64,000 bases of DNA from Siphonodentalium dalli (taxonomy: Eukaryota; Mollusca; Scaphopoda; Gadilida; Siphonodentaliidae). Positions 11,634 to 42,517 of this stretch are shown here, piece after piece (within the stretch, counting starts at the first letter, position 1; each line of letters opens with the position of its first letter). The notes below the pieces were generated by a model that worked only from the letters and a program-made list of their open reading frames with translations, made no database searches and had not been told where the DNA came from. Location: the NCBI GenBank assembly GCA_032622095.1, contig CP136068.1, positions 58,552,025-58,616,024 of the forward strand, read 5' to 3'. A program made the position numbers and the translations under genes.

Positions 11634-11878
11634 TGATTTGCACTTAAGCGCAAATAATTCTTGTTATTTGCGCTTAAGCGCAAATAAATCCAGATATTTG
11701 CGCTTAAGCGCAAATAATAGAAATTATTTGCGCTTAAGCGCAAATCATTTGCGCTTAAGCGCAAATAAATATCAAGAATCCTTTAGGGAAACTATTTGCG
11801 CTTAAGCGCAAATCATTTGCGATTAAGCGCAAATCATTTGCGATTAAGCGCAATTCATTTGCGCTTAAGCGCAAATAG
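11634..11878. repeat. Palindrome cluster A (9 copies)
   Basis: Nine copies of the palindrome with core TTTGCGCTTAAGCGCAAA, spaced 20-46 bp apart. Three carry single changes (GCAC, GATT). They lie upstream of the decayed integrase exon-1 copy, in the same relative position as cluster F at the intact gene. A small frame at 11796-12065 is only this repeat read through. Confidence 0.9.
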
Positions 11879-12224
11879 ATCTTCCTTTTTAGAAAAACCC
11901 CCTTCATATCAATGGCTCAAGCCTTGCTACCATGTGATCATAAGGGGAGGACTTCCAGTGATGCTTTGCCAAATAAAAATGAATGGGAACAGTTCATTGT
12001 GCAACCATGTCCTACTCCGTAGGCTACGAAAGACAGTTTTCACATTCAGGCTATCACCCCCATAAGATTTTTAGGAAGGTCTAAACCAATTAAGTTATCA
12101 TTTTTCATTAGGAATCCATTTTCCCTCCTTTTTTCATTTGAACTTGGGGCAGCTGGGTGTACATGTACATCATCTATAAGTATTACAATGCAAATATCAT
12201 TTCTAAATAATTATGGATGTTGAT

Positions 12225-12512
12225 CTAACTATGACAACATTGAGCAGGATTTTGCGAACAATTTTTAATTTATGATGGATGACAGGACTGTTCAGTCAGC
12301 AAATGAAAGATACTCATTAAAGTCTGAATTGGATCAGTGTATTTGGAGAGGATTAAACCTTCAATGGCTTCATCATTCTGTTCATTGAGGTGCAGTCTCT
12401 ATAGGATAAGTTGAAGGCTTTGTTTGGTATTTAAGACATTTTTCTCCAATGAATCAAGAGTTGAATCAAGAACAGAAGATAATTCATTTACAGAATCAAT
12501 TGCCGGAGGAAG
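12225..12512 (+). pseudogene. Decayed duplicate of integrase exon 1
   Basis: Collinear with the minus-strand exon at 41978-42290: shared stretches include TTTTTAATTTATGATGGA, ACAGGACTGTTC, GTCAGCAAATGAAAGA, CTGAATTGGATCA and GAGAGGATTAAACCTTCA. It has lost its ATG and contains indels and stops. The donor region GAGGTTAGTATCAA is kept, as are about 150 bp upstream (GGAATCCATTTTCCCTCC). Confidence 0.8.
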
Positions 12513-12723
12513 AGGTTAGTATCAATTTAACCAATGATTGGATTTTAAATTAATTAGATCGATCGGTCTTATTAATATTAAAACCAATTGAATTGGTCTT
12601 TTCCAGACTTGCATGTACGTTAACTGGAATAAGGGGAATCACTTTAAACTGTTCTATAATTAACCCAATTGTGTTGTAACATCATATAATACATAGATCT
12701 CTGTCAATCTGTTAGGTTTCCAG

Positions 12724-12882
12724 ATTATTTGCGCTTAAGCGCAAATAGGTTATTTGCGCTTAAGCGCAAATAAGTTATTTGCGCTTAAGCGCAAATAATC
12801 TAATGGTTACCAAAGCTCTCAGTCTCCATTAGATTATTTGCGCTTAAGCGCAAATAAATTATTTGCGCTTAAGCGCAAATAA
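12724..12882. repeat. Palindrome cluster B (5 copies)
   Basis: Five copies of the TTTGCGCTTAAGCGCAAA palindrome, three before and two after the AATCTAATGG inverted repeat. Relative to the exon-1 copy this is the intron-1 position. Confidence 0.9.
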
Positions 12883-12938
12883 AGCCTGGCATCTTCATAC
12901 CATATAAAGTTTTCATTCAAAACCGATATGGTGCACAT

Positions 12939-13322
12939 CAGGGACCAGCCTAGGGGGCGACGTGGGCGAAATAGTCGCCCTGTGTGGCCGTAAGTCGCCC
13001 TGAAATGACGTCAGGGAGAAGGGGATGTCTCCCTAAAAAAAAAAAAAAATATATTATTTTAGTTAAATTTTTAATCTCCCTGAAGAATTGGTGACTGGAT
13101 GATCTACTGCTCAGCTTAACACTTCCAGTTTATCCTCACCCATGTAGAAAATCTATTGTGGACAATAATAACAGCTAAAACAATCAGTTCCAATGAATAG
13201 TTACTGGCGACAAATAGTCGCACTAACGCTCCACTTCTCCCTGGTATGCCCCCCACTTCTCCTTATTTTTCCAAGAGGGAGAAGTCACTTCTCCCTATAT
13301 TTTGACCCTAGGCTGGTCCCTG
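12939..13322. mobile_element. hAT-like MITE with 8-bp TSD and empty site
   Basis: Perfect 17-bp TIRs CAGGGACCAGCCTAGGG at both ends, flanked by the 8-bp direct repeat GTGCACAT (12931-12938 and 13323-13330). The duplicate segment at 14.63 kb has a single GTGCACGT and no insert, a preserved empty site. An 8-bp TSD and CAGGG tips fit hAT. The interior has GTCGCCCTG and CACTTCTCCCT motifs and no coding potential. Confidence 0.92.
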
Positions 13323-13534
13323 GTGCACATGGTAGTTCTGTCTTCAACCCCTGATTAACCCTTTCATGATGGGAGCTGCACTATTGCAGCATTAAAGATC
13401 CTATGCCCGTGAATTTTCTTATAGATGCAAGTTTCCCATAGGGAGCCTCGCATGTATTAAAGAATGCACTAGCTTACAAGGTGAATAATTTTAGGCCAGT
13501 CAGGGACGCCGGAGAAGGGGGGCATGAGGGGGCA

Positions 13535-13555
13535 CTCCCCCCCCCCCCCCCCCTT
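13535..13555 (+). repeat. Poly-C run
   Basis: Long C run just after the point where the two intron-1 duplicates diverge (GGCATGAGGG). The adjoining 13555-13650 is GC-rich, unlike the surroundings. Confidence 0.8.
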
Positions 13556-13659
13556 GCCCTGGCCCGGGGTGTCTAATTGGGACCCAAATGGTGCCCTACT
13601 GGCTCGTTTGCCCCCCTTGCCCTTTCGTGCTTCCGGCCTCCCTGAGGCCAATGTATTAT

Positions 13660-14262
13660 CTTACAGGTATATATGTGAGGCTCCAGGGGTCGATTTAATT
13701 TTTAAAATTTGTATAACATTTTGCAGCACTTGGTAGATTTTGTATAGTATTCCCTACGATACCAATACATGTTTTTTCATTGTAAATAATTAATATTTGT
13801 TTCCACCATATTTTTAGACACCTACCCCCAAAGTTTCTCTAACTTCCATCTTAATCAGTATACAACTCACAGTTATAGAGCTCTAATAGTACGTGGCTAT
13901 TTCAGTTCCAAAACATGGAATATAACAATTAATATCTTTGAACATTATCAAGCTTAGATGTTTGTTCATGAATCAGTTAGATACCAGTTGTACCATAATT
14001 CCAAAACTATTCCTGACTATAATGCCAACCAATCCATCATCCACATGTATACTGTACCGACCCATACCATTTTTTACCATCCACTGGAGATCAATTTATG
14101 ATAGGCTATGAAGCAGTTTCCGAGTGTAGTTAGATATTTATCACAAATTGGAGGAGTAACAAATTTATTCCTGAGTTCATTAACATAGTCTCATTAGGAT
14201 AGTATGTTGCCTACTCATATTTATGCATACAGAATATCAATATCAACCTCCTCATTTCTTTG
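13660..14262. other. No gene recognised
   Basis: AT-rich sequence between the two intron-1 duplicates, with no usable frame. Confidence 0.5.
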
Positions 14263-14844
14263 AGGAAGAGGTTAGTATCAAGTTAACCAATGATTGGATT
14301 TTAAATTAATTAGATCGATCGGTCTCATTAATATTAAGACCAGTTGAATTGGTCTTTTCCAGACTTGCATGTATGGTAACTGGAATAAGGGGAATCACTT
14401 TAAACTGTTCTATAATTAACCCAATTGTGTTGTAACATCATATAATACATAGATCTCTGTCAATCTGTTAGGTTTCCAGATTATTTGCTCTTAGGCGCAA
14501 ATAAGTTATTTGCGCTTAAGCGCAAATAATCTAATGGTTACCAAAGCTCTCAGTCTCCATTAGATTATTTGCGCTTAAGCGCAAATAAAGCCTGGCATCT
14601 TCATACCATATCAAGTTTTCATTCAACACCGATATTGTGCACGTGGTAGTTCTGTCATCGTACCCCTGATTAACCCTTTCATGATGGGAGCTGCACTATT
14701 GCAGCATTAAAGATCCTATGCCCGTGAATTTTCTTATAGATGCAAGTTTCCCATAGGGAGCCTCGCATGTATTAAAGAATGCACTAGCTTACAAGGTGAA
14801 TAATTTTAGGCCAGTCAGGGACGCCGGAGAAGGGGGGCATGAGG
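14263..14844. repeat. Intron-1 segment duplicate, copy 2 (empty site)
   Basis: Direct copy of 12507-13531 without the hAT-like MITE. It begins at the exon-1 donor (GAAGAGGTTAGTATCAA) and ends at CATGAGGG, so both borders are sharp. Palindrome cluster C lies inside. Confidence 0.85.
14484..14590. repeat. Palindrome cluster C (3 copies)
   Basis: Three copies of the palindrome; the first is degenerate (TTTGCTCTTAGGCGCAAA). Positions correspond to cluster B. Confidence 0.9.
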
Positions 14845-17800
14845 GATGCAAGAAGGAAACATCATTTCTTGTACTTCTGCAACTTTATTAAGCACTTATC
14901 AACTATTGTCTCAATCAAATCAATTCACTAATAAATTCAGCCTAAAAAAAAAACAAACAAAAAACAAGAATTGTCCTAGTAACATACTTGTATTTTCACA
15001 TTAGTTCAAATCAGTCTTTTCGTGTCATCTAGAATTGATACAGTGACATAGCTAAATGAATACTGGGCTACTTACTATTTGATCTCTTACCCAGCACCTA
15101 TACCCCGCTCCCAAACCAAAGTAACCTAAAATAACATGTATTCTTAAAACATTTATCTTTTTTTTTTCAGCCAAGACCTAGTGGTACTCATAATTCTGCA
15201 CCTGTATCAACTACAGACAGACACGCTATTTCAAGGCTTGACAATGACATGATTATCAAAGTGGGACACTTTATTAATCTATTTTTAGAACAGACAATAT
15301 CGTATAGCGATAGAGATCATTAGGGTGTTCCTGTAGATATATGCACAAAGTGTCAAATATCCCAGGTTGCTTGTTTGTATTGTGTTATTACATTGTTATA
15401 AGCGATAAAGAATCTAATTAACTTTTATTTGTGACGAAATTACACAATAAAAATTCTGGTCTCTGTTAACAATAACCACTATGGTTCGTTCGCTAAACTG
15501 TCGCACGTTTTTAGACCCGAAAATATTTGAAATATAATGAATATTAATCAATTTCCGGACAGGGGTCTTTGATTCATATCTAATATTTTATACCCCGGTA
15601 ACTATATTATATAATATAACACATGTTTACAAAGAGATAGATCATCTTTAAGACTTCGTTCCTTCCACAAAAAACTAGAACAATTTAATGTCACTTTCAA
15701 CATCTATGGTCATGATGTGAAAGGACACCTATATTCAGGCAATGGCATTCGTTGATATTTACTAGTACCCCATGCTGTGTCCCGAGTCTTAGACTATAAA
15801 AATGTCCCATCTTGTTCTTCAGGGAACAATACAGGGGTAATTGGGTAATTTGAGTTAGAAACTGATTGATTATTCAATATTATGAAGAAGTATTATACAA
15901 TAACTCATATATACCAGTATCTGGAGCCATAAATTTTGTACAGTGAAGCCTCTTTAAATGAAAAATGACACAAGAATAAAGAGATAGTAATCTCTTTGAC
16001 CAATTTATTTCATCACTTGCACCATTAGCATTATGTGAGTGTCCTGGTAGGGACTATAATTATGTAGACTGTGAATGTTTGTAATACATCAATAGTTTCA
16101 AGCTACAAATATATCTTACTAGTATACTAAGTACACATATGATTAAGATATACAAAGTAAATTAAAGAATAAAATATATGCATACTGATCGGTCAGTCAT
16201 TGGTCAATATGAGAATATGTAGCCAGGGATGAATCGCCTCATCACAAGTATTTACAAACTAGTACTACAAGCACGATTTTGCACTGGGTGAAGGACAGAG
16301 TACAAATTCAGCAAAGCCCTGTTGAAATGCAATAGAATCACACATTGACGATTAATAACTTGTTAATATGCTATTGAACAATGACTATTTATCTATTCAG
16401 GAAAGCTTGGCATATTCATATCGTAGGAACTAGAGTTTTTCACATTTTCCATTTTAGAGTTATCCTTCTTTGCTATCTGACAATCGTTTCTTTTTGCTTT
16501 CAAAAGAGTGCCAAATGACAGAGTATGCATTTTCATTTTGTCTGAGTTATCACCCTTAGTTTGTAAATTTTTGCTGTTTGTCCACCTTGATAACTCTAAC
16601 AAATATAAACCAACTTCAATAATTGTTGGTAATCATGCCAGTTTTATTCAATCATCACAGGCCAGATTAAGACATCTTTCAAATTAAGACACATAATCAA
16701 ATGAATGAACTTCACAGGAAAGTCAATTTGGCAGGGGGATAGTCTGGGCAGTGCACTTGTTGGAAGGCATGGACAGCCTTGGTTGTAGGTTATAATTTTA
16801 TAAACAAGTTTCCAAATTATGAAAATGTCCTCAAGAATATAGTAAAACAATATAATGATGGTATAAATGGGATATTATCAACAAAACACCCTTTGTGTGA
16901 GCTGAGAATTTGTCTATATACAGCACATCAAGAGTAAGCAAAAGGGTATTTTTTTGAGAGAGTGATTGACAGTGATCGACCCATTCAAAAAACGATATCT
17001 TGAGTGGCGAGGATCATAAGAAAGTGCTAATGCTATACAGTTTGAACCAAAGTCCACTTTGTGGTGTTGTGTGTTTTGCTTTTGTACGATCTTTACATAC
17101 TGTACTTTAACAGAATTTGGCTTTCTTTTACATAACACTGCATACAAACTTGACAACATCATATTATTTACACAAAATTTATGATTGGTATAAAGAACAA
17201 AATCTGTCTATATTTTAATATTCTTTCTGTTTAATGGATGTAACTATTTTAACAGCAATACCACTGTGAAGACACCCATGCCTTTAACTTTGCGAAACAT
17301 AATGTTAATCCGTAAAATTTCAAAAGTCTTAAAACTTAAAATTTTGGTACGTCACTTGAATGTATCACAGATACAATGGTAATATTTCAAATGTGTTGAT
17401 AAACAAATATCACTGATACACACAATTACAGTAGTCCCTGCTGCCAACCAGCAGAATGAATTATAATTTATTGTTTATTTAATCTGAGAGACCAAGTGTA
17501 TGATGATTGATGGGCCAATTCTATACCACCCAGATGATGGATCATTGATGGACTTGATGGGGTACCTACCCAGGTGCTATGCCAACCTGGGGAATGTAGC
17601 ATTCTAATAACATCACCGAAAACTTCAAAGAAATCGACCATACCACTTCATAGAAAACATCATCTGAACTACGCCCAATTTTAAATATTTACATATTGAT
17701 TCGGGCGGCAACTATCAGCAATAATCTAACACAAATAATTTTGATAGTCATTGCATTTAATTAATATATATATATATATATAACCCGTCATCTGTTTGTG

Positions 17801-18563
17801 TCTATCTACATGTTTGTAATTCTGTCACGCTTTTGGCGCGTTTATAACTTTTCAGCAAATTTGGAACAAGGCCTACAGTTAATCATAGAAGACGACTTAA
17901 CAACTTTCATGCCGATTGGTCAAAGAGAACCTGAGTTCAAACTTGGTCCCCCCAAATGCCGTATTTGCATTCAAGTAGACACTATTAATTTTGTTACAAC
18001 GTTTGTCCAAATGACATCATGTGATGTACACAAACCCACACTTGCATTGCTATTGTATTTTGACAAAATTTCCATGCGCTCAACCCATTGTTGGAAATGG
18101 GTGATATAATTTAATTTGTCAGTTCAGGTTGAGTGTGAATAAAAGTTGAAATGCATGTTGATTTTGTCATGGAAGTGCATGGGGTTTAGAGTGGAGACTC
18201 AAACTTTCTATGCCATCATTGAAAATGGGTGCTAAATGGTCTTTCCATTTGCCACTTCAGTGTGAATATAAGTAATGGATGTTGTCTTTGAAAGTTGTGC
18301 ATTGAGTGTGGATTCGAAGGAGTATATATCTGAGTAATGGCAAACTTTTATGTATAAAATGTTGATACAATACCAAAATGGGCGGGAGGTGTGCAAATGG
18401 GCCGCAGTGCAGGGGCCTATGGTCTTATAGGCCTATATATGCTGCTGAGTAAAATCTCCCAAAGGGAGCCTGTTCAAGATCATAATGCATGTGTGCAAAG
18501 GGCACAGATGGCCTGCAGGCCACACCTTCACTGAATAAAGGCCCTGTTTCAGTTACAGTAGTA
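14845..18563. other. 3.7-kb AT-rich stretch, no gene recognised
   Basis: Only short frames, none with a recognisable domain. A pyrimidine tract plus CAG at 15159-15170 could be a splice acceptor, but no matching exon follows. There is an (AT)n tract at 17764-17782. The sequence at 17630-17770 is related to 34485-34580, so both are copies of a dispersed repeat. Confidence 0.5.
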
Positions 18564-18568
18564 CATAT

Positions 18569-18721
18569 TGATAGACTTTGGACTTATACTACGCGTTGTT
18601 ATGTACCCTGTTGGTTGAGACCAGATTATCATTGGCTAGAATATATTCCTCTTGTTTGCCAATGCTCGTTGTTACATCAACACAATTCCTCCATAATAAG
18701 TTATATTCACCAAACATAACA
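18569..18721 (+). repeat. 5' LTR
   Basis: Begins TGATAGACTTTGGAC and ends CCAAACATAACA; I find no difference from the 3' LTR. The target duplication CATAT precedes it. I see no strong TATA box in it. Confidence 0.93.
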
Positions 18722-18740
18722 TGGCGTCGTCGACAGGATG
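18722..18740 (+). other. Primer-binding site, probably tRNA-Ser
   Basis: Directly after the 5' LTR: TGGCGTCGTCGACAGGAT. TGG pairs with the CCA end, and the rest is close to the complement of a serine tRNA acceptor and T arm. The tRNA identity is inferred from remembered metazoan tRNA-Ser ends. Confidence 0.6.
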
Positions 18741-18848
18741 TGTAAGCGTTTGAATTATAGGATCGCAAAACCACAGTTTGGTTTATAACAAAGGTTGAAT
18801 TGACTAAGATCGGACAATTTTGTTTGACTCAGAACAAAGGGGCACACG

Positions 18849-21800
18849 ATGGGTGATCCTCCAGATTTCAATTTCGCCACGTCGAGGTTAATGCCAGACA
18901 AATTGGACATATCAGTGGACCGAGGTGAAGCTTTCAACATTTGGGCCCAAAGATGGGCGGATTTTGCTCAGCTGTCAAAACTCAATGGTCAACCCGCCGA
19001 TGTTCAAATGGCTATTTTACGGTCATGTCTGGCCAACGATACCCTCAAAGTAGCGATGAATTTGAATTTGTCCGCTGACAAGAAAGATAAACCTCAGGAA
19101 GTTGTGAAAGCATTGCAACGTCACATAATCGGACAGGTTAATGTTGTGATAGAGCGTCGCAATTTTAACATGCGTATGCAACAAGAAGGGGAACAATTCG
19201 ACGATTTGTTAACTGACTTACGAGAATTAACAAAAACCTGTGACTTTTGTGAGACATGTCAAGAATCGTTACTGCGAGACCGGATCGTGACTGGTATTCG
19301 TGATTCAGATACAGTCGAAAAGTTACTAGCGCAGAAGGATCTGAGCTTGGAGCAAGCCATCGATATATGTAGAGCTGACGAGGCTGCAAAGCGTCATTGT
19401 CAAGAAATTACAAGTGCTGTTGGTGGCCTGGATGTCAATGTCATGTCACAATATCGACGTAAGAAATCTAAATTTTTAAAACCAAGCAAGAAATCGACAG
19501 ATGCGACTGATAATGGTGATAGTGCGACTTGCATTCGGTGCACTAAAAAACATTCTGACTCAAGTCGGTGTCCTGCTGCTAACACAAATTGTGCTGTCTG
19601 TCGGCAGAAAGGTCACTGGGCGAAATCAACAATATGTCCCGGTGCATTAGGCAGTCAACATCGACAACAGTTTTCAGCCATCCGATTTGGACAATTGCTT
19701 GCTAAAATAAATGACCAACGCATGCATGCTAAGTTGAAATATAGGCGGTCCCCAACCATTGACATTGAAGTTGGTGGTGATATTGCCAATGGGTCAATAA
19801 TAAAAACAGTACCTGATTCTGGAGCTGAAGGTAGTGCATGTGGACTAGATGTTTTAAATAAACTGAACATCGATATCGCAAATCTTCGACCACCTACCAT
19901 ATCACTGAAAGCAGCTGACGAACATGAAATCGAACAATTAGGCGAATTTGATGCAGTGCTTAAGTGTGGCTCATCTGAATGCACAGAGACTATACACGTG
20001 TTAAATGGAACCAAAGGCCTCTACATGTCGTGGTTTGCGTCTCGTACACTTGGCATATTACCGAGGGACTATCCTGCCCAATGTGTTAACACAGAGGCAT
20101 GTTCGACATCTTCAAAAAGCATGAAACCCATATCTAAAATACCCGACCATTTGGATGTGAGGTGTGAAAATTCAGTGACCGACCATTCGCATGTGAGGTG
20201 CGAAAAAGCAACTAAAGAACATTTGGACATGAGGTGCGAAAAACCAGGGACCGATCGTTTAGATGTGAGGTGCGAGAAAGCACTGATCGACCATTCAGAT
20301 GCGAGCTATGGAAATCGTATACCGAATAGCGATAATACACCATTTTTCATCGCAAATGGTCCTGAACAACATTCCTCATCTGTGAATCGACAAAGAATCA
20401 CTGATACTCACGATAATACACACTTTAACAAACTTCAAGCTGGACTATCTGATATATCGCCCACAGACCATTCGCGTGTGACTACAAAGAATGTCTTAAA
20501 TGGGTCACAGGTAGCCAACATTCGTGATCAGTTGATCAAGGAGTTTCCGAGCGTATTCGATGGAGTGATCAGAACAATGCCAGATGAAGAATTTAAGATA
20601 GAAATCGAGGACAATGCATCGCCAGTTTGTATTAGCGCTCCAAGGACAGTGCCATACGCATATCGCGAAAAGCTTCAGAACAAGCTTGAAGACATGGTAC
20701 GTGATAAGATCATCATCCAGGTCACCGAGCCGACTGAATGGTGTGCGCCAATAGTGGTCGTAACAAAAAAATCGTCTGATGATATCCGAGTTTGCGTTGA
20801 TTTTACTAAACTGAACAAATATGTAAAACGTGAGAGGTATAATTCACCATGCCCACAGGAAGCCGTAGCAGACATGGCCGCCTCTAATGCTCGATTTTTT
20901 GCATCTCTTGACTGTTTGAGTGGATATTGGCAATGTCCACTGGCATCAGAATCACAGCATTTGACCACGTTTATCACGCCTTTTGGTAGATTTATGTTCT
21001 TGCGTGCACCTTTCGGAATATGCTCTATCTCAGAACATTATAACAGACGTATGGATAATGCACTTGCTGGGTTACCTCGATACAGGAAAGTCGTCGATGA
21101 TTTGATCGCGTACGACGACACTCTGGCCGATCATGTCACACACGTTCGCCAAATACTTGCAAGATGTAGAGACCGTGGGATATCTCTGAATGCAGACAAG
21201 TTTCACGTTGCTGAACAGGAAATCGATTTCTGTGGATATCGATTAAGTGGATCAGGTTACACAATCAATCCAGAGGTCACAGAATCTATCCGCAATTTCC
21301 CTATACCTAAGAACATTACAGACTTGCGATCGTTCTTCGGACTAGCCAACCAACTCGCTGGTTTCACGGATAAAATCGCCACACATCTTGACAAGTTAAG
21401 GCCGTTGTTAAAGTCACACAATGACTTTGTTTGGAATTCTATACACGACCAGGCTTTTAAGGATTCTCGCATTATGCTTTCAACAGCACCGGTTTTATCC
21501 TATTATGATCCAAAACGGCCAACATCGCTACATGTTGACGCGAGTCGTTTAAATGGACTAGGATTCGTTCTGTTCCAAAAGGATACCGAAACTGGAAATT
21601 GGCATCTGATTCAGGCAGGATCGCGTTTCCTGTCAGACGCGGAATCCCGATACGCAATGATCGAGCTTGAGATGCTTGGTGCCGTTTGGGCAGTCCAAAA
21701 GTGCCAAATTTTTCTTGAAGGCCTCTCGAATTTTGATATTGTTACTGATCATCGACCTTTATTGCCAATCATGAACAGTTATCATTTATCGGACATAGAC

Positions 21801-31611: not shown

Positions 31612-31661
31612 TAAACTGTAGAAAGAATTCATGTGATAAACTGTAGAAAGAATTCATGTGA
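31612..31661. repeat. 24-bp tandem duplication
   Basis: Two copies of ATAAACTGTAGAAAGAATTC plus ATGTG in a row, immediately outside the right end of the 5.2-kb element. Confidence 0.8.
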
Positions 31662-32037
31662 CTGAATTTTTGGTTGGCATTAACACTTTTAAGTGATTCG
31701 ATATAATATAATCTTGCCCAAGTTTAATAAGTTATTTTGATTTTTTTCATATTCAAATACATGTAGGCAGAAAAAAAACACAATTTGTCCTGAATAAAGT
31801 AGTAAATATTTTCATTTGTGCATAGTTGTGTTCTCTGAAATGGCACAGTCGATGTGGTTGGAAATTTCAAAAAAATTAGTTGATTGCTACATTCTACCAG
31901 TGGAACTGTTGTTGGGTGCTAACTTCTGAGTTTAAGTCACTGAAATAATTAAGTCAACAAGATGTCACTAAAAATGTGAATCTAGAAGTTACTTATTCAA
32001 GCCACAGCTATGTAAATTTCCAACTAAACAATCAACT

Positions 32038-32773
32038 TCATTGGGGACTTTCTAATATTGACTTGCACACCAAATATTTATCTTTTGGATCTATAATGTT
32101 TGAGGTCCTTTGGAAAATTTCATTGCTCTGAGCTTCAGAAACTGGGATGGTGACTCCAGAAACATGGACAGCATCTGGTTCAGCTCCATCTTGAAGTGTA
32201 CTATCTTGATTAGTACTGGTGAAATCTTGAACTCTCCTTCTAATGTCCTCAGCAATTGAGTTATTATCAATTCTACCAATTGTGCCTTGAATCCAAAGCT
32301 GTTCTGGAGACATATTTTGTTCTGAAGATAACTTATGAGAATTCCACGCCTGCATGAAAGCTTGTAAATCTGCATTTATACAATCAATATAAGCATAATG
32401 TAAACAAAATTTATGTACATCATCACCAGGATCCAGAATATTCTCATCTTCAAAAGAATAAAACAATAAATAATACTTCTCAACAACTTCCTTGTACACA
32501 TCTCTCCACATTCTTTCAATCCTCTGATTATGAACGCTCTCTCCCGTCAGATGACTATTATTCATACTTTCGTCATTCAATATATTCATTAAAACAGCAA
32601 CCTGGACATTCTCGCCTCCATAATCAGACCTCACTCTCGATGGCACTCCATATGCAAGCACAGCTTGAAGAAATGATTCCAAAACAGTTGACGATGAGTT
32701 ATCAGTTGAACATTTCATATATGTAATCATCCTAGTTTTCCCATCCACACAACCATGCGTTGCCAAGCCCCAT
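32038..32773 (-). CDS. Integrase gene exon 5 (DDE core and C-terminus)
   Basis: 736 nt; acceptor TTTTATTTCAG. Encodes WGLATHGCVDGKTRMI, then RVRSDYGGEN (D292), SVHNQRIERMWRD (E328), a helical region with LHYAYIDCIN and SPEQLWIQG, and a variable tail. An open frame runs about 146 nt upstream into the intron, but the splice gives the conserved VR-WGL join. Confidence 0.9.
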
Positions 32774-35700
32774 CTGAAATAAAATGATGGGATGGTAATA
32801 ATAATGGGGTATATCCACATACTTATTATGCCCCCAACCCGCTGAAGGAGGATTCGGGGGAATAAATTGGAGACGTCTGTCCATCGAGCCGTCTGTCCAT
32901 AACAAACATTTCTCAACACAGCTCAAGTATTGATAGTCCAATTTGGATGTCCTTTGGTATGCCAGTAGACCAGCATTTTGAAAAGGATCTCCACATAGTG
33001 CAATTTTTTTCCAGCATTATGGCCCTTTGCTGGACAATGCGTCCATAACAAACATTCTGTGGATGTCTTTATTATTGGATTTCATTGTTCTTTGGCATAG
33101 CACATGTTGGGGAAAGGATATCCACATACTATGGGTTTCGTGCATTAATTTTTGCCAGTTATGACCCTTGTTTGACTTGGAATTTGTGTCTGAAAGAATA
33201 TATCAGCTTGAAAAGCTGGGTGTTGATTATCGGATTTTGTTGTCCTTTGTCACGGTGATAGCACATGTTGGTGGAAAGGATACCCAGATACTATGGTTTT
33301 TATCCATTAATTTTTACCAGAATTACAGCTCTTGTTCTACTTGCCCTAAGTAATGGACTCCTTAATCTTTCCGATGAATGGCAACTAGCCATATTTCCGA
33401 CTAAATCCTGAAAAGTTACCCATAATTCTGCTGTGGTTAAGGAGTCCATTACTTAGAGCATTAATGCATGGGTCAAATGGCTCAGTGATAATGTCCTATA
33501 TGAAGTCTAATAGTCGATACTTATCAAGATGGAAGTTTTATGATGCCATTATAAATTGATTGATGGTATCTGTAATCAAATGACAGATATTTAATGCCAA
33601 TTTGCACAATAAGGAGTGGTATGGTAACTCCAAATTTGAACACTGGTAAAATATGGTAGGGGGAAGAATATTGATAAAAACTTTAAACATGAAAAATTCT
33701 GTGGAAGTTAGTTCTGGGTAAAACCATATATCATATAGTGGAATGAACCAGATAATAAGGATTTTAATTATTATGAGTATTAACTAGTATGCAGATAGTA
33801 TGGGACATTGCAGTTTACTTACCGAACAAGCTTCATGTGACCATCCATGTGCCACAAGCTATTTGGATGGGGTACAAAGTAGCGTCGTCTGACAACTGTT
33901 CTGGACCAGCGAGATGCTACCGATGCAGGATCTATTCTCCTGAGTGATTGCCTTACTCTTTCTCTTTGAACATTGAAACCACTTGTCATTAAATATGCCA
34001 TCATCATCTGTAATTGAAGAGGAATTATTTCATATTTCTCCCTTAATCATTTATATACTAAAATCTCATTGATGAGTAGTTAACGACAATTGGCTGTTTT
34101 GTTAAACTTATTATCTGAACATTTTCCAGCAATGAATATGAATCCTTCTGTTCTTCTATTTATAACCTGAACATACTTAAAAATGAACAATAGACCATTC
34201 CACTGACTTTTAATACTGAGTGGGAGCGTCAACTGAGTATAGAAGGGGTTGAAATTAAGGCTGATGCTAGTGGCACAATAAGGCGACAATGTCCACAAAT
34301 TTGAAAAGCCAAGCAGAGACCCATGCATTATCATAATAATATCTAAGTATTTTGTATGTATAATCACTGCAATAATACACTTAAAAACACTTCGCTCTTT
34401 CATTAAAAAACTGCAAAAATTTAACTTGTAATACTAGTAAAAAAAAACAACAAAAGCTCTCTGGATGTACAATGTAGTGACTTGAAGCAAATCAATACCA
34501 CTCCACAGAAAACATCGTCTGAACTATGCTCACTCAACTAACAAAAACGATTTTGCCATCGACAGTCACTGCAATTAATTAATGTATAAGAATGATGGAT
34601 TGTGTTGTCAATTTGGATATAATATTTGTAAAAATAACGACCGGTACTTTGAGCATGATTATTCTCCATTTCTATTTGATCACCCTATCGGATTGTTTCA
34701 CATCAGTTTAATATCGTTAGTCTTACCTTTACTCCAGCATTTGGATGCTTCTCATGTGAAGTTGTAACAATCTGGTCCAAATCTGTGTTTGAAATATTTG
34801 AATATTTGTCTCTCTGCTTTCCTCCTTTGGCATAAAGGGTGTTGTAAACATGACTTCGGCTACAGCCCAAAACCTTTATACAGAAGAGAAAAAGGTTTTA
34901 TGAATAAATACAATGGGGACCATAAAGACCGGAACTATTTAAAATTATGATCTATGTCCTTGACAATATTAAATAACAGAGTTGCTACAAAAAACTAATA
35001 AATCATTTACTCCTGCATGTATTTTCTCCATTAAATTTAAAAGTATAGGTTTAAACATTATTCTTAATTTGTGAGGGATGTTCAGAGTATAATCACTGAC
35101 AACAATATTGTTGAAATTGAGCATGAAATACTTATGTAATCTGCCCACGAGAAATATGTTGTAATTTTGTTGTCTGACATTTTCAGGTGAGGAATCACAT
35201 TCCACACAAGTGGAATTACATTCCACACAAAATTTTAGACCAGCCTAAACCAACTTGCATGTGCAGGGTATTTTGGGTCAATGGAAATGACTCATGGTCC
35301 CCTTAAATTTCCATGGTGATCCATTCACAGATGTGAGCATCTTAGATGCCATCTCCTGCATTTGTGGCCTTTTCCTATAACTCAGAACTTCTCTGAAAAA
35401 GACAATTTATTTAATATTGAATTTATTCATCAAACTCATGGATTGTTGTTTTTAAGGTTTTGTCTCAACTCTGTTTATAGTTCCAATATCGCCCAATACA
35501 TGTAGTTTTTATGGTGAACAGAAAATAGGAATATGAATACAAAATCAATATTTGAACCAAATTAAAAAAAAAAATGAAAGTGTCAATGACACTGTAGCTC
35601 AACTTGGAAAGGGAATAATTTAATATATTACAGTCAATGGAGCGATTAGGAATGTGGAAAGTTGAATGTCTAATACTAGTTTATAGACATGAAGAGAAAA

Positions 35701-38700
35701 GTAAAATCCAAGATGGCTGCTGGCGGCCATGTTTTCAGCCGAATGACCCCAAAATGAGTCGTTCCCATCTACATGTCATCGTTAACATCAATGACAAATT
35801 TTATGACGATCAGACTAAAGGTACGACCTGTGGCCCGTGCTAATGGATTAAATTTTGAAATCCAAGATGGCCACTGGCGGCCATGTTTTTTGTCCGAATG
35901 ACCCCGAAATCAGACTAAAGGTACGACCTGTAGCCCGTGGTAAAGGATTTAGTCATACAAAGAGTAAAATCCAAGTTGGCTGCTGGCGGCCATGTTTTTT
36001 GGCCAAATGACCCCAAAATGACTCGTTCCCATCTACATGTCATTATTAACATTCATGACAAATTTTATGATGATCAGACTAAAGGTACAACCTGTAGCCC
36101 GTGCTAAAGGATTTAGTCATACAAAGAGTAAAATCCAAGATGGCTGCTGGCGACCATGTTTTTTGGCCGATTGACCCCAAAATTACTCGTTCCCATCTAC
36201 ATGTCATTGTTAAGAACCATGACAAATTTTATGATGATCAGCTAAAGGTACGACCTGTAGCCCGTGCTAAAGAATTTAGTCATACAAAGAGTAAAATCCA
36301 AGATGGCTGCTGGCGGCCATGTTTTTGGCCAAATGACACCCAAAATTACTCGTTCCCATCTACATGTCAATATTAACATCCATGACAAATTTAATGATGA
36401 TCAGACGAACAGTACGACCTGTGGCCCGTGCTAATGGATTAAATTTTGAAATCCAAGATGGCTGCTAGCGGCCATGTTTTTTGTCCGAATGACCCCAAAA
36501 TGACTCGTTCCCATTTACATTCCAATTTCAACAGCCATGAAAAATTTTATGATGATCAGACTAAAGGTACGACCTGTAGCCTGTGCTAAAGGATTTAGTC
36601 ATACAAAGAGTAAAATCCAAGATGGCTGCTGGCGGCCATTTTTTTTGGCCGAATGACCCCAAAATGACTCGTTCCCATCTACATGTCATTATTAACATTC
36701 ATGACAAATTTTATGATGATCAGACTAAAGATACAACCTGTAGCCCGTGCTAAAGGATTTAGTCATACAAAGAGTGAAATCCAAGATGGCTGCTGGCGGC
36801 CATGTTTTTCGGCCAAATGACCCCAAAAGTACTCGTTCCCATCTACATGTCAATATTAACATCCATGACAAATTTCATGATGATCAGACGAACAGTACTA
36901 ACTGTGGCCCGTGCTAATGGATTAAATTTTTAAATGCAAGATGGCTGCTGGCGGCCATGTTTTTTGTCCGAATGATCCCAAAATGACTCGTTCCCATCTA
37001 CATTCCAATTTCAACAGCCATGACAAATTTTATGATGATCAGACTAAATGTACGACCTGTAGCCTGTGCTAAAGGATTTAGTCATACAAAGAGTAAAATC
37101 CAAGATGGCTGCTGGCGACCATGTTTTTTTGGCCGAATGACCCCAAAACTACTCGTTCCCATCTACATGTCAATATTATCATCCATGACAAATTTCATGA
37201 TGATCAGACAAACAGTACGGCCTGTAGCCCGTGCTAATGGATTGAATTTTGAAATCTAAGATGGCCGCTGGCGGCCATGTTTTTTTTCCGAATGACCCCA
37301 AAATGAATCATTCCGGTACAAATGTTGATGTCAACAGCTATGACAAATTTCATAATGATCCGATCAAAGGTACGACCTGTAGCCTCTATTGTTGACGCCT
37401 TACGTACACACGCACACACGGACGACGGACGACAAAGCCATGGCAATAGCTCAAACTTTACAAAGTAAAGTTGAGCTAAAAAATGGTATTGAGCACATAT
37501 GATTAGATCAATGTAGCAGTAGTTATTTTAGTATCTTTTGAAATTGAATTTTTTAGTTTTCACTTGTAACTTAAAGGTACTCAATCCGATAAAACTCCTC
37601 TCAATTACTATTTCAATGACTTCGGGGGTCAAAAATATTTGATTTGAGTCGAGGAAGCCACCCATCAAAGCTCAGATTTTTTAGATATCGATTTTAGAAA
37701 TCTATTATTTTTCATTATCGGGAATACTTTCTGGCCCAGATCACAGTCAAAATTGCGTTATTATTACCTCTTGATTTTAGAGTTATCCATCCTTGTCTGG
37801 TTGAATAGTGTTTTGGTGTATACATCTCGAGCATATTACGAAGTTGAAGGCAATTATTAGTACTCATCTCGAGAAAATAACAAATTTCAAAAATCAATAT
37901 CTAATAACTCTGAGCTTTGTTTATGGGTTCCTCGACTCGAATCAAATATTTTTTACCCCCAAAGCCAAAGAAATAGTAATATAGGACCCTCTGATCGGAT
38001 TGTTGTTGTTGGAATCTGTTGAGATGGGGACCCTCTGATCGGATTGAGTACCTTTATATTACCTTTGAAATTTGGGATGCTGTGAAGTTCTTCTCCTGCA
38101 GAAACTTTATCTGTGCGATTGACACACCAATCTTTGGTCTCCCTAAAGTATAAAATGGTTACACAAAAAATCAATAGTCATAAAATACTATGAAATCAGC
38201 TCTGCACAGGAGATCGGTGATAATACACATAGGTTGGAAATTTTCCAACTGGTGACCATTTGAGTCCACAATTTTGACCAAATGTAGTAAAACATTGTTT
38301 TCTTAAACTCGTTAGCAGTTTTTATTGGGCCACGGGGAAGAGACTAGGACACATCGGAGCGGCCAGTGTAGGAAAATTTTGAAATCTGAACAAGAAAATC
38401 ACAAAATCCTAGCATCTAGACTGGCCTCAAGCCTTGCAAGAGTTGGAAATTTCAAACCTGACACCCGACTTAGGTTGGAAAATTTCTAACTGATGACAAT
38501 TCCAGTGACAATTTTTACCAAATGTAGGATAATATTGTTTTCTTAAATTAACTAGCAGTTTTTGACTGGCCATGAGCTTTCCCAGTGTTGGAAATTTACA
38601 GCCTGACACCCCTCCCCCCCCCCCCCCCCACCAAAGTTGGAAAATTTTCGATGGCCATTTCAGTCCAATATTACCAAAAGAAGGAAAACAAGCAAATATT

Positions 38701-41700
38701 GGTCCAAAAACAATAAATTGTTTGAAAATCAAACTACAAGAAAATTTTCAATAAATTGTTGGTGTGATATTTCCAACCAATGTTGTGTCCATTATGAAAT
38801 TTCCAACTGTTGAAAATTTTGACCAAATTGAGACACCTCCCCAAACCCCCTCCCTCCCTGTCGCCATGGCTCTGCAAATACTTGACCTTTATAAGGGATA
38901 TGAGTATAAAACTGTGTTTCTACTTGTCAGAACCCTGAATATCTATTTAGCTCAATACTTGACCTTTATAAGGGATATGAGTATAAAACTGTGTTTCTAC
39001 TTGTCAGAACCCTGAATATCTATTTAGCTCAATACTATTTATGTAAGTATCTTCTCTATGAAAAAATAAATGGAAATAAATAACTGTGATATACTGAAAT
39101 GCTGTGCTACACGTATTTGCAGGTAATTTCAAAAGTTCTTTGCCTCAAAGCCTAAAATAATGAATAAAACAATTTGAATAAATACAAATGGGTGCATGGA
39201 TACCCAAAAATATGCAGTAACAAAACTTATAAACAAGAGGTTGCACCTGCAGTGCTGGCATACCAACCACAGTGGTAAAAATCAAGCCAAAAAAGTATGG
39301 TTGAGATATCTGACAGAAAAAGAAAACAATATTTTCATACTGATCAAAGATAAATAACTCAAGAAAAGAAAACATGAATGAAGGATGGGATAGGATAATT
39401 TATTTCCAATATACACATATACATACATATATAAACATAGAAACAACAAGATAAACAATCACAAATTGTGATATATTGAGAGGGGGCAGCTTAGTCTAAT
39501 ATAAACTGTCACCCCTGTTTAATGAGTGTAATAAATATTAGATGGCTATAAGATGAATGAATTGATTGAACAATTAATTGATTGCCACCATAGTAGTGAA
39601 CATCCATACCAAATTTCATTGATATCCGTCAACCAGTGGTTGAGATATCTGCTTGGACAGACATTTCCAGATAAACAAAGATGAATACTGTGTATTACAT
39701 GTAACTCTAGAACAAAAAACCCGAAAAAAAAGATTGAACACTCCATTGAATGGCCTCATAGTAATGCCATCCATTATACCATTCAAAATTTCATTCAGAT
39801 CTGACAACCAATGTTTGAGATATCTGCCCGGACAGATCGACAGATGTCTGCCCATATCTTTGGTCTTTCCTTGTTGTTTTTGACAGGTTTGACCACTTAA
39901 GACTGCCCATGAATAATGGGTTTTAGGTAGTAGTTCGAAATTAGATGGGTTAAACTTTCTTTTGTCTTCGGCTCCTTCCATGACAACGTGCACCTTAGGC
40001 TCAAATGTGCACCCAGACGGACGGCCGGACGAACAGATGGAAAAACGGACAGACATCGTCCAGATACCCCATCTTTCAACCAATTTTTTTTCTCAATTTT
40101 ATTCAAGAAAATAGAGTTCCCTCTCTTACACCAGTGAGCACTGTATGTTGAAGACCAATCGTCTATTTTTGAACAATCAGTCTAATAAAGATTGACGACC
40201 TGTGTATGTAAGACTTTATTTGCGCTTAAGCGCAAATAAAGCCTTAGGCCTACATACAAATGAAATAAGCTATTTGCGCTTAAGCGCAAATACCTATTTC
40301 CTTTCTATTTGCGCTTAAGCGCAAATAAAGTATTTCCTTTCTATTTGCGCTTAAGCGCAAATAAAGCCTAACACACAGAGATTGACAGCTTTGGTAAGCA
40401 TGAAAATTGATAAATTATAAAACAGATGTATGATATGATTTTATTAAAAGGTACTCAATCCTGTGGTATAAAATTTCCCAAAACATGTTAATTATCAACA
40501 TGTTGTTGAATGAAATATGGCCATATTATCACTTGATTATCACAAAATTTGGCCATAGTACCACTTTATTTTAGAGTTATCCATCTTCATCTGCAATTTT
40601 GTCCGAGACCGTCACCTTGACAAATATTTTCCAGGCCACAAATAAGTAGGTATCTCGAGAAATAAAAAATTTCAAAAATTAATATTTGATCACTCTGAGT
40701 TTTGACGGGTGGGTTCCTCGACTTGAATAAAATATTTTTTGCCCCTGAAGTCAAAGAAATAGTATATTTGGAGCTTTAATTCAGATTATGCATCTCTAAT
40801 TTAGTTATATTTTTTTTAGAAAATAAATTTAATTATACTGTATACAGCCTTATCAGGAAATATGTTTAATTTGTGGGAACACATGTTACTTATCTGAGGT
40901 GTTTGGTGCTTTGTATCAATCTAAAAGATACCATTATTCTTATTAAGAACAATTTAGTAGCTTATACAGCCTGCTAAATATCACATGCTTGATATATGTC
41001 ACAAATTAATTCTGATTTCTTTTGAAAGACCCTGAATAATTATTTACTGATATTATTTAATAAACATTTACAAATCTGCAAACAAACAAAATTTCAATAT
41101 TCAAGAAATTTAGAGTTCGATCCCTCTCTTTAATACATAAGTGAGCACTGTGCCAGGAGGACTGATCGGTCTCATAAAGCTTTATCGATAGTTAACCCAG
41201 ACATGTGTGTGTAAGAAATTATTTGCGCTTAAGCGCAAATAACCTATTTGCGCTTAAGCGCAAATAAAGCCTTACATACGTGTGTGTAAGGCTTTATTTG
41301 CGCTTAAGCGCAAATAATTTATTTGCGCTTAAGCGCAAATAACCTATTTGCGCTTAAGCGCAAATAACCTATTTGCGCTTAAGCGCAAATAAAGCCTTAC
41401 ATACGTGTGTGTAAGGCTTTATTTGCGCTTAAGCGCAAATAATTTATTTGCGCTTAAGCGCAAATAACCTATTTGCGCTTAAGCACAAATAAAGCCTTAC
41501 ATACGTGTGTGTAAGGCTTTATTTGCGCTTAAGCGCAAATAATTTATTTGCGCCTAAGCGCAAATAACCTATTTGCGCTTAAGCGCAAATAAAGCCTTAC
41601 ATACGTGTGTGTAAGGCTTTATTTGAGCTTAAGCGCAAATAATTTATTTGCGCTTAAGCGCAAATAACCTATTTGCGCTTAAGCGCAAATAAAGCCTTAC

Positions 41701-42290
41701 GTACACAGATTGATATGCAAATTTCTAAATTTTAAAGCAGAGATGTATGATATGTTTCAAGGGGGGGGGGGGGTGCAGTTAAATTATTTATATTACCCCC
41801 CCCCCCCCCTCCCAATGAGGAGATCCTCAAGCAGCATCCCTGGGTGTGTAGATGTGTTCAATCAACATTCTTGTTTTATTTTAAAACAATCCAACAACAA
41901 ACAAGAGGTATCCGGTGAGTAAAATATTACTTTTCTGTCCTAAATTTGAAAAAGGATTCAAATAAATTGATACTAACCTCTCCCTCTGGGAACTGATTCC
42001 GTTAAAGAACTAACTTCTGTTCTTGATTGATGTCTTGGTTCAGCTTCATTTGAAAAAAATGTCTTAAATAGTTGTAATGAGGCATTCAACTCATCGTATC
42101 GAGATTGCCTCAATGAAGGTTTAATCCTCTCCAAATTGAGAATACATTGATCCAATTCAGATTTTAATGAGTCTCTTTCATTTGCTGACAGAACAGTCCT
42201 GTTTCCTCCATCATAAATTAAAAACCGTTCGCAATTCCTGACAATCCTGCTCATAGTGGTCAGAATTTGATTAATTTGAGCCGAATCCAT
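32038..42290 (-). CDS. Five-exon DDE integrase/transposase gene, 486 aa
   Basis: Coding exons on the minus strand: 42290-41978, 38142-38063, 34873-34727, 34007-33823, 32773-32038. They sum to 1,461 nt and stay in one frame with stop at 32038-32040; every intron is GT...AG and phases fit at all four junctions. Residues 1-104 are a helical, charged N-terminus. About 105-150 (GRPKIGVSIAQIKFL to LGCSRSHVYNTLYAK) look like a helix-turn-helix. D235 (WHMDGH), D292 (RSDYGGEN) and E328 (NQRIERMW) form a D-D-35-E triad of a retroviral-type integrase core. The family is a widespread uncharacterised 'integrase core domain' group. Likely role: nuclear DNA strand transfer, as a transposase or a domesticated derivative. 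Introns carry MITEs, none of which breaks an exon. Promoter not identified. Superfamily unresolved (IS3EU or Ginger are candidates). Confidence 0.85.
32774..33822 (-). repeat. Intron 4 with degenerate repeats
   Basis: GT...AG intron. It contains loosely repeated units of about 150 bp (CCATAACAAACATT, GGATATCCACATA, TTTTTTCCAGCATTATGGCCC) and the MITE at 33346. I see no coding match. Confidence 0.6.
33346..33456. mobile_element. 111-bp MITE in intron 4
   Basis: Perfect 20-bp inverted ends CTAAGTAATGGACTCCTTAA. No TSD could be fixed. Confidence 0.7.
33823..34007 (-). CDS. Integrase gene exon 4
   Basis: 185 nt; acceptor CTCTTCAATTACAG, donor GTAAGT. Encodes MMMAYLMTSGFNVQRERVR, SLRRIDP and RRYFVPHPNSLWHMDGH with the first catalytic Asp (D235). 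Ends two bases into an Arg codon. Confidence 0.88.
34008..34726 (-). other. Intron 3, no further feature
   Basis: GT...AG intron. The part at 34485-34580 resembles 17630-17770, a dispersed repeat. Frames at 34080-34403 and 34582-34767 are not recognised. Confidence 0.55.
34727..34873 (-). CDS. Integrase gene exon 3
   Basis: 147 nt, phase 0 at both ends; pyrimidine-rich acceptor ending TATAAAG, donor GTAAGA. Encodes VLGCSRSHVYNTLYAKGG (recognition helix region) and the linker DLDQIVTTSHEKHPNAGVK. Confidence 0.85.
35590..37486. repeat. About 180-bp tandem array in intron 2, bounded by inverted repeats
   Basis: Roughly nine units with CAAGATGGCTGCTGGCGGCC, GAATGACCCCAAAATGACTC, TTCCCATCTACATGTCA, GATGATCAGACTAAAGG and CGACCTGTAGCCCGTGCTAA. 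The outer ends TAGCTCAACTT (35596) and AAGTTGAGCTA (37479) are inverse, so the array is probably the swollen interior of a MITE. Each unit has a site like the YY1 consensus (AAGATGGCGGC). Plus-strand frames here are the repeat read through. Confidence 0.8.
37573..38057. mobile_element. MITE abutting the exon-2 splice donor
   Basis: Ends AAAGGTACTCAATCCGAT at the left and ATCGGATTGAGTACCTTT at the right are inverse. The right half carries a second GACC(CTC)TGATCGGATTG. The right tip lies a few bases beyond the GTAATA donor of exon 2. A diverged relative is at 40446-40790. Confidence 0.75.
38063..38142 (-). CDS. Integrase gene exon 2
   Basis: 80 nt; acceptor TATACTTTAG, donor GTAATA. Completes the split Gly codon and encodes RPKIGVSIAQIKFLQEKNF and on to QISK, the first part of the helix-turn-helix. 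The MITE at 37573-38057 begins only a few bases beyond its donor. Confidence 0.85.
38220..38870. repeat. GTTGGAAATTTTCCAAC repeats in intron 1
   Basis: Repeated blocks of GTTGGAAATTT, ACTG-TGACCATTT-AGTCCA and ACAATTTTGACCAAATGTAG in direct and inverted order, with a poly-C run near 38607-38620. Probably overlapping copies of a small MITE. The 101- and 60-aa frames are shadows. Confidence 0.55.
38877..39030. repeat. Exact 77-bp tandem duplication
   Basis: Two copies of a 77-bp unit, AATACTTGACCTTTATAAGG to TATTTAGCTC, with no difference that I can see. A very recent event. Confidence 0.9.
39560..40100. repeat. Degenerate repeat with GAGATATCTG-C-GGACAGA motifs
   Basis: Tandem diverged copies of ACCA-TGGTTGAGATATCTG-C-GGACAGA, ending with GACGGACGGCCGGACGAACA. 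Minus-strand frames (39546-40106) change phase between copies and are not genes. Confidence 0.5.
40214..40362. repeat. Palindrome cluster D (4 copies)
   Basis: Four exact copies of the TTTGCGCTTAAGCGCAAA palindrome in intron 1 of the integrase gene, between TAAGACTTTA and TAAAGCC. Confidence 0.9.
40446..40790. repeat. Diverged relative of the exon-2 MITE
   Basis: Left end AAAGGTACTCAATCC, then TTTAGAGTTATCCATCTTC and GGGTTCCTCGACTTGAAT, as in 37573-38057. The right end is lost. Confidence 0.55.
41219..41697. repeat. Palindrome cluster E (15 copies)
   Basis: Fifteen copies (four with one base change) in 480 bp, arranged as higher-order units of two to four palindromes separated by AACC or AATT and linked by a second palindrome, GCCTTAC-ATACGTGTGT-GTAAGGC. 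Lies in intron 1, about 0.3 kb downstream of exon 1. Confidence 0.92.
41761..41809. repeat. Facing G and C runs
   Basis: A 13-G run, about 22 bp of AT-rich sequence, then a 14-C run; could fold as a hairpin. Lies 0.17 kb inside intron 1. Confidence 0.8.
41978..42290 (-). CDS. Integrase gene exon 1
   Basis: Starts at ATG 42290 (MDSAQINQIL), codons 1-104 plus one base (G), donor GTTAGT at 41977. Rich in Ser, Arg and Glu, probably helical. A frame upstream in another phase (42303-42932) is not joined to it. A decayed copy lies at 12225-12512. Confidence 0.85.
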
Positions 42291-42446
42291 AATTATTTAG
42301 AATTAGAAATGAAATTCACATTCCTGGTATTGTACATCCAGCTGCCACAATGAAAATGAAATAAGGAGGGAAAATGGATTCCTAATGAAAACAATAATTT
42401 GGACTAGCCCTTCATAAAAATAATATGGGGGTGATAGCCTCAACTT

Positions 42447-42517
42447 ATATTTGCGCTTAAGCGCAAATGATTTGCGCTTAAGCGCAAATGAATTGCGCTT
42501 AAGTGCAATTGGGGAAT
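42447..42517. repeat. Palindrome cluster F (3 copies)
   Basis: Three copies, the last degenerate (ATTGCGCTTAAGTGCAAT), upstream of the integrase ATG. Matches cluster A in order and flanks (GGGAGGCC-TTTTCACATTTATTCC). Confidence 0.9.

What the first reader, a model, noticed from the sequence alone, without database searches (positions are those of the whole stretch)
11634..42517. Thirty-nine copies of one palindrome, all tied to integrase exon 1 and intron 1
The palindrome with core TTTGCGCTTAAGCGCAAA (22 bp with its flanking TA pairs) occurs in six clusters of 9, 5, 3, 4, 15 and 3 copies. Two clusters lie upstream of exon 1 (intact locus and decayed copy); the others lie in intron 1 or its duplicates. 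I saw none elsewhere in 64 kb. Arrays of perfect palindromes at a fixed place relative to a transposase gene could be binding sites for its helix-turn-helix, sites of strand exchange, or an autoregulatory operator. I know of no described element with this layout.
Basis: partly seen in the sequence, partly recalled or inferred. Interest (0 to 1): 0.9.

Follow-up and report, generated by a model that had tools for sequence, protein, structure and literature searches.

The report
Palindromes marking a jumping gene's ends
The repeated palindromes sit near both ends of one large cut-and-paste transposon and in many small relatives of it, where they probably serve as docking sites for the enzyme that moves it; this is a new variation on a known kind of mobile DNA.

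Summary
In detail: 39 palindromes (31 exact, 8 with 1-3 mismatches), all within 11637-42509. The exon 1/intron 1 framing does not explain them. The interval is one 30.9-kb DNA transposon, 11606-42540, with terminal inverted repeats TATGGGAGGCC...GGCCTCCCATA and a perfect 6-bp target duplication; about 12 kb is later inserts. Eight more TIR-bounded relatives (16-23 kb) enclose near-identical integrase copies elsewhere in this 2.23-Gb genome; 8 of these 9 long elements have perfect 6-bp duplications. Termini, duplication and integrase fit the IS3EU superfamily. The palindromes form mirrored clusters near both ends; the first starts exactly 31 bp from the tip in 18 of 18 long-element ends. Genome-wide there are 4201 exact palindromes; 20 of 20 loci read on contig 1 carry the same tip but no integrase nearby. 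A tip followed within 30 bp by CTTAAG occurs 1812 times, at that register in 94 of the 100 listed. Best reading: subterminal transposase-binding arrays, dimer on dyad, possibly also repressing the transposase promoter. Binding is inferred, not shown.

The parts
11606..42540 (-). whole DNA transposon, 30,935 bp (about 18.7 kb without nested inserts); 5' end at 42540
   Evidence: facing TIR tips, 6-bp duplication, colinear second copy on C3, length without inserts
11606..11630 (+). 3' terminal inverted repeat tip
42516..42540 (-). 5' terminal inverted repeat tip
11600..11605 (.). target site duplication CTCATG, left
42541..42546 (.). target site duplication CTCATG, right
11637..11875 (.). 3' subterminal array, 9 palindromes, first at +31 from the tip
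12728..12879 (.). inner 3' array, 5 palindromes
14484..14585 (.). inner 3' array, 3 palindromes, in a partial duplicate of 12506-12858
40219..40361 (.). inner 5' array (intron 1), 4 palindromes
41222..41689 (.). inner 5' array (intron 1), 15 palindromes, higher-order 100-bp units
42450..42509 (.). 5' subterminal array, 3 palindromes, first at +31 from the tip, 160-219 bp upstream of the ATG
41978..42290 (-). transposase exon 1 (start codon at 42290)
38063..38142 (-). transposase exon 2 (helix-turn-helix, first part)
34727..34873 (-). transposase exon 3 (helix-turn-helix, second part)
33823..34007 (-). transposase exon 4 (ends in the start of the integrase core; first catalytic D assigned by eye)
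32038..32773 (-). transposase exon 5 (rest of the integrase core, PF24764 rva_4)
12048..12529 (+). decayed inverted relative of exon 1 and its upstream DNA in the 3' end
   Evidence: frames with stops; present in the C3 copy
18569..23579 (+). nested Gypsy-like LTR retrotransposon, absent from the C3 copy
26357..31595 (.). nested element with long inverted repeats, absent from the C3 copy

Best explanation
The palindromes are subterminal cis-elements of a young IS3EU-type cut-and-paste DNA transposon. SHOWN: TIR tips, 6-bp target duplications, a 486-aa transposase reading frame with an integrase core and a helix-turn-helix-like stretch, mirrored palindrome clusters near both ends, a fixed +31 register of the first palindrome, and the same tip plus palindromes at many loci without a transposase nearby. 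INFERRED: a transposase dimer binds each two-fold-symmetric palindrome through its N-terminal helix-turn-helix; arrays at both ends load several dimers and help bring the ends together, so that the catalytic core reaches the tip 31 bp away. The same occupancy at the 5' array, 160-219 bp upstream of the ATG in the window copy, could repress the transposase promoter. The inner arrays at about 1-3 kb may add affinity, regulate, or be passive duplications.
For: Facing tips and duplication in the window. Eight more long TIR pairs around integrase copies; 8 of 9 long elements with a perfect 6-bp duplication. First palindrome at +31 in 18 of 18 ends of nine long elements, in 26 of 39 tips at 20 sampled loci, and in 94 of 100 listed of 1812 genome-wide tip-plus-CTTAAG matches, reversed control 0. 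At the 20 loci, 131 of 169 palindromes (up to 4 mismatches) and 27 of 29 exact ones lie within 350 bp inside a tip. Between long-element 5' and 3' ends the tip agrees at 24 of 25 and the palindrome at 16 of 18 positions, the stretch after it at 6 of 21. Helix-turn-helix upstream of the core (HTH_23, E 6e-4, below its cut-off). Precedent: piggyBac palindromes bound by two domains of a transposase dimer (PMC11707139, passages).
Against: No binding or mobility data. The +31 counts are not independent: copies share descent, so only a few lineages (5' end, 3' end, short-element groups, one diverged short element) count separately. The short-element ends compared were chosen for a palindrome at +31. 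The inner arrays have no fixed register. 38 of 169 palindromes at the sampled loci are not within 350 bp inside a recognised tip, and 11 of the 20 loci show no facing tip pair within 3 kb. 8 of 39 tips also have palindromes outside. One long element (C3:137755462) has no target duplication. Of 12 facing tip pairs at the 20 loci only 3 have a perfect 6-bp duplication and 3 more have five of six (some pairs join nested tips).
Confidence: 0.72

Rival explanations
1. Operator only: the palindromes control transcription of the transposase and play no part in transposition.
For: The 5' array lies 160-219 bp upstream of the start codon, and two inner arrays lie in intron 1.
Against: Arrays of 8-10 copies lie at the 3' end, which has no gene start, in 9 of 9 long elements, and palindromes occur at tip-bearing loci with no integrase match within 935 kb.
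Confidence: 0.08
2. Passive repeats: the palindromes multiply by slippage or gene conversion inside transposon ends and have no function beyond the first copy or none at all.
For: Copy number varies between near-identical elements (5' arrays 3-7, 3' arrays 8-10), and the largest inner array consists of 100-bp units. An analogous route from palindromes to tandem repeats is discussed for short elements in general in PMC8268682 (passage).
Against: The first copy keeps an exact +31 register across diverged lineages, and the palindrome is kept between the 5' and 3' ends while neighbouring DNA is not.
Confidence: 0.12
3. The palindromes work as DNA structure (cruciforms) rather than as a protein-read sequence.
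For: Perfect dyads. Among 136 distinct 18-mers, 47 double changes at mirrored positions stay complementary, against 32.0 expected from 2,000 shuffles of halves (p about 0.0005). A diverged short element has a symmetric variant, ATTGCGCTTAAGCGCAAT (L019).
Against: The shuffle ignores common descent. One-sided changes (306) far outnumber the 58 two-sided ones. A homodimer reading the sequence predicts the same symmetry.
Confidence: 0.04
4. A host transcription factor or silencing factor, not the transposase, binds the palindromes.
For: Nothing direct; short dyads are common binding sites of host factors (general knowledge).
Against: Fixed distance to the tip and presence at both ends.
Confidence: 0.04

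Closest known systems
IS3EU (IS3EU/GingerRoot) DNA transposon superfamily
   Same: TA..TA ends, TAYGG..CCRTA tips, 6-bp target duplications (PMC10045372 and PMC12730594, passages); integrase-like DDE core
   Different: About 16-23 kb long here; subterminal and inner arrays of a perfect palindrome, which the passages read do not mention ('subterminal' occurs 0 times in PMC10045372)
piggyBac / piggyBat ends
   Same: Palindromic sites inside the tips, repeated, read by a transposase dimer (PMC11707139, passages)
   Different: There 19-bp or imperfect palindromes, few per end, bound by C-terminal cysteine-rich domains; different transposase. Here 3-10 copies per outer array plus inner arrays, and the proposed reader is an N-terminal helix-turn-helix
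P element and other transposons with subterminal repeats
   Same: Transposase sites inside the tips; P elements have 10-bp transposase sites inside 31-bp TIRs (PMC7776569, passages). Tol2 was seen only as a title in a reference list
   Different: P elements have 8-bp duplications and 10-bp sites in the passages read; no arrays of 18-22 bp perfect palindromes mentioned there

Membership tests
IS3EU | TA..TA termini, TAYGG..CCRTA tips, TIRs over 30 bp | tested here: inconclusive
   Tips TATGGGAGG...CCTCCCATA in 18 of 18 long-element ends (C3 copy), so the end signature is met. 5' and 3' ends agree at 24 of the first 25 positions, then 4 of 6, then 16 of 18, so an uninterrupted TIR of more than 30 bp is not shown; the over-30-bp figure is given for fungal families
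IS3EU | 6-bp target site duplication (usual, per PMC10045372) | tested here: met
   8 of 9 long elements perfect (and, for the exception)
IS3EU | DDE transposase without N-terminal HHCC zinc domain | tested here: met
   Pfam rva_4 E 1.7e-84 and rve E 4.7e-7 in the spliced protein; no zinc-domain family among the 11 listed at E up to 10. Catalytic residues assigned by eye
IS3EU | Transposase falls in the IS3EU/GingerRoot clade | not tested
   The protein database is switched off and no reference IS3EU sequences were at hand
transposons with subterminal transposase-binding arrays | Repeats inside the tips at both ends, kept in non-autonomous derivatives | tested here: met
   Both ends of nine long elements; 37 of 39 tips at 20 loci have a palindrome within 300 bp inside
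transposons with subterminal transposase-binding arrays | Transposase binds the repeat and needs it for transposition | not testable with these tools
   Needs binding and mobility assays

The most novel reading that the evidence does not exclude
The palindrome is the address label of a whole transposon clan. Transposase dimers loaded on paired arrays at both ends form an avidity-based synapse with a fixed 31-bp ruler to the tip; the same arrays repress the transposase promoter; and thousands of palindromes in short derivatives soak up transposase, so that the load of derivatives sets the activity of the autonomous copies.
Probability: 0.2. Interest if true: 0.65.

Novelty: new variant of a known kind. 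Interest (0 to 1): 0.45.

Why it matters
I found no description of how IS3EU transposases recognise their ends (searches; passages; Repbase could not be searched). This family offers young elements (16 full-length open integrase cores at 97-100% identity), a clear candidate binding site and a natural series of arrays of different length, so end recognition and dosage control become directly testable. It also shows how thousands of scattered palindromes in a large animal-sized genome can trace back to one transposon clan.

Tried and rejected
Integrase exon/intron framing: rejected because the same arrays lie at the other end and at tip-bearing loci with no integrase nearby.

'Decayed second integrase locus': rejected. 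11606-18568 is the 3' part of the same transposon, and the C3 copy has the same relic.

Second gene in the element: five of the longer open frames gave no Pfam match at E up to 1. Stop-to-stop frames of 120 aa or more that overlap the element are the integrase core exon and an antisense frame inside it, one anonymous minus-strand frame (39616-40092, among the five tested), a minus-strand frame that crosses the 5' end (42303-42935, not tested), and frames of the nested inserts. Small exons could have been missed.

Solved structures of the integrase core exon: none at E up to 0.1. The string GCGCTTAAGCGC in papers: four papers, none about a transposon by title and start of abstract.

Inverted and direct repeats of the 3' part were listed but not used. 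Organism not identified.
Full report
WHAT WAS CHECKED. One search finds 39 matches to TTTGCGCTTAAGCGCAAA with up to 3 mismatches in the window (0.01 expected); one search finds 31 exact. The window lies in a 2.23-Gb genome held in 9 contigs. There the exact 18-mer occurs 4201 times, with 0 matches for the reversed control.

WHAT IT IS. Just outside the two outermost clusters lies the same sequence, TATGGGAGGCC[A/G]TTTTCACATTTAT, at 11606 (+) and 42540 (-). The two copies face each other, and there is no other match with up to 3 mismatches in the window. The six bases outside each are the same word, CTCATG. So 11606-42540 is one inserted unit of 30,935 bp. A second copy, C3:137755462-137774127 (18,666 bp), aligns colinearly along the unit, its main blocks at 95-99% identity. 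It lacks the Gypsy-like element at 18569-23579 (identical 153-bp LTRs, 5-bp duplication CATAT, empty site in the C3 copy), the inverted-repeat element at 26357-31595, and a satellite stretch near 35530-37477, where it has about 94 bp of other sequence. Without these the window copy is about 18.7 kb.

COPIES. The integrase core query (293 aa) has 113 matches in the genome, a lower bound by the tool's own note. Sixteen, the window included, span the whole query at 97-100% identity without a stop. The tip with G or A at position 12 occurs 143 times exactly; 100 places are listed, ending on contig 6. Among these, tips face each other across integrase copies at eight loci besides the window, giving elements of 16.3 to 23.1 kb; one of the eight has a stop in its integrase core (C4). 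Several other integrase copies on contigs 1-5 have only one exact tip in the list. I read the flanks of seven of the eight, and 7 of 7 have a perfect 6-bp duplication. The eighth (C3:137755462) has none; it sits inside a sequence 96-98% identical to the element's own 14264-14589 region. With the window that makes 8 of 9.

THE GENE. Five exons with GT-AG introns give an uninterrupted 486-aa protein. Pfam finds the integrase core rva_4 (E 1.7e-84, residues 223-415) and a helix-turn-helix HTH_23 below its cut-off (E 6e-4, residues 116-145). The catalytic D, D and E were assigned by eye. No second gene was recognised, though small exons could be missed.

WHERE THE PALINDROMES SIT. Counted from the tips, window clusters lie at 31-90, 851-1318 and 2179-2321 bp from the 5' end and at 31-269, 1122-1273 and 2878-2979 bp from the 3' end; the C3 copy has the same mirrored plan with somewhat different distances for the inner clusters. 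In 18 of 18 ends of nine long elements the first palindrome starts exactly 31 bp from the tip; 5' arrays hold 3-7 copies and 3' arrays 8-10 within the first 350 bp, at up to 4 mismatches. The tip-proximal 5' site is a variant with 2-3 mismatches in 9 of 9. The two ends are old inverted relatives (74.6% over 482 bp, including a decayed exon 1).

THE REST OF THE GENOME. One search listed 50 palindrome sites, all in the first 49 Mb of contig 1. All 20 loci carry at least one tip with up to 6 of 25 mismatches. Facing tips within 3 kb were found at 9 of the 20; 11 show one orientation only. The 20 loci hold 39 such tips, against 0 for the reversed pattern and a mean of 0.1 in order-1 Markov sequence. 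Of the 39, 37 have a palindrome within 300 bp inside and 8 have one within 300 bp outside; 26 have one at +31. Of 169 palindromes with up to 4 mismatches, 131 lie within 350 bp inside a tip and 38 do not; of exact ones 27 of 29 do. Facing tips are 0.5-2.1 kb apart; of 12 such pairs 3 have a perfect 6-bp duplication, 3 five of six, 6 fewer, some of these joining nested tips. None of the 50 listed sites lies within 935 kb of an integrase match. Genome-wide a 37-bp form of the short-element tip occurs 941 times. A tip followed within 30 bp by CTTAAG occurs 1812 times, 0 reversed; in 94 of the 100 listed (all on contig 1) the spacing puts the palindrome at +31 (counted by hand).

WHAT IS CONSERVED. 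Consensus sequences of long-element 5' ends, 3' ends and 26 short-element ends agree pairwise at 24 of 25 tip positions and 15-17 of 18 palindrome positions, but only 2-4 of 6 spacer positions and 6-12 of 21 positions after the palindrome. The 26 short-element ends had been chosen for a palindrome at +31; the 5'-to-3' comparison (24 of 25, 4 of 6, 16 of 18, 6 of 21) had not. One very different short element (L019:206-510) has a related tip and its own symmetric variant, ATTGCGCTTAAGCGCAAT. Mirrored double changes that stay complementary are commoner than expected (47 against 32.0), but common descent was not controlled and one-sided changes dominate (306).

HOW IT MOST LIKELY WORKS. Shown: the anatomy above. 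Inferred: transposase dimers bind the dyads through the N-terminal helix-turn-helix; arrays at both ends load several dimers and favour pairing of the ends; the fixed 31-bp distance positions the catalytic core on the tip. The 5' array, 160-219 bp upstream of the ATG in the window copy, may double as an operator. Precedent: piggyBac has identical 19-bp palindromes in both ends, bound by two cysteine-rich domains of the dimer, and subterminal sequence of piggyBat inhibits its transposition (PMC11707139, passages). The role of the inner arrays is open: they have no fixed register, and the largest consists of 100-bp units.

COMPARISON WITH KNOWN KINDS. TA..TA ends and usually 6-bp TSDs are given for IS3EU in general (PMC10045372, passages), and TAYGG..CCRTA ends with TIRs over 30 bp for fungal IS3EU families (PMC12730594, passages). 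The end signature and TSD are met here, as is an integrase-like transposase without a recognised zinc domain; an uninterrupted TIR over 30 bp is not shown, and a tree could not be built. The searches showed no paper that describes palindrome arrays in IS3EU, going by listings and by passages of the papers opened; three papers hold both 'IS3EU' and 'palindrom', and the passages seen in all three concern other things. Repbase itself could not be searched, so such arrays may exist there undescribed.

VERDICT. A real feature, partly misread: subterminal palindrome arrays of a large, recently mobile IS3EU-type transposon and of many short relatives. That the interval is one transposon is close to certain; that the transposase binds the palindromes is likely but untested.

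Noticed in passing
18569-23579: Gypsy-like LTR retrotransposon nested in the transposon: 153-bp LTRs identical, 5-bp duplication CATAT, one uninterrupted 1495-aa frame, absent from the C3 copy, so a very recent insertion.
   Followed up: partly
26357-31595: Nested element with long inverted repeats (about 670 bp, 91-92%) and TAG repeated on both sides; absent from the C3 copy; family not identified.
   Followed up: partly
35567-37484: Satellite-like stretch with a period near 164 bp inside intron 2 of the window copy; related tandem repeats lie near palindrome loci L013, L014 and L020.
   Followed up: no
L032 and L033, outer ends (C3:137755300-137755461 and 137774128-137774300): The C3 copy is inserted into DNA 96-98% like the element's own 14264-14589 region, beside palindromes, and lacks a 6-bp duplication; self-nesting or rearrangement.
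   Followed up: partly
L019:206-510: Diverged short element with a related tip and its own array of a symmetric variant palindrome (ATTGCGCTTAAGCGCAAT).
   Followed up: partly
41205-41704: The 15-copy inner array is built of 100-bp higher-order units that include a further inverted repeat (AAAGCCTTACATACGTGTGTGTAAGGCTTT).
   Followed up: no
61600-63970: Tandem array with a 35/76/111-bp pattern, present in both orientations (313-bp inverted arms).
   Followed up: no
43789-45393 and 51373-52416: Minus-strand frames: a reverse transcriptase (RVT_1, E 3.8e-40) and a frame that by eye looks like part of a non-LTR element.
   Followed up: no
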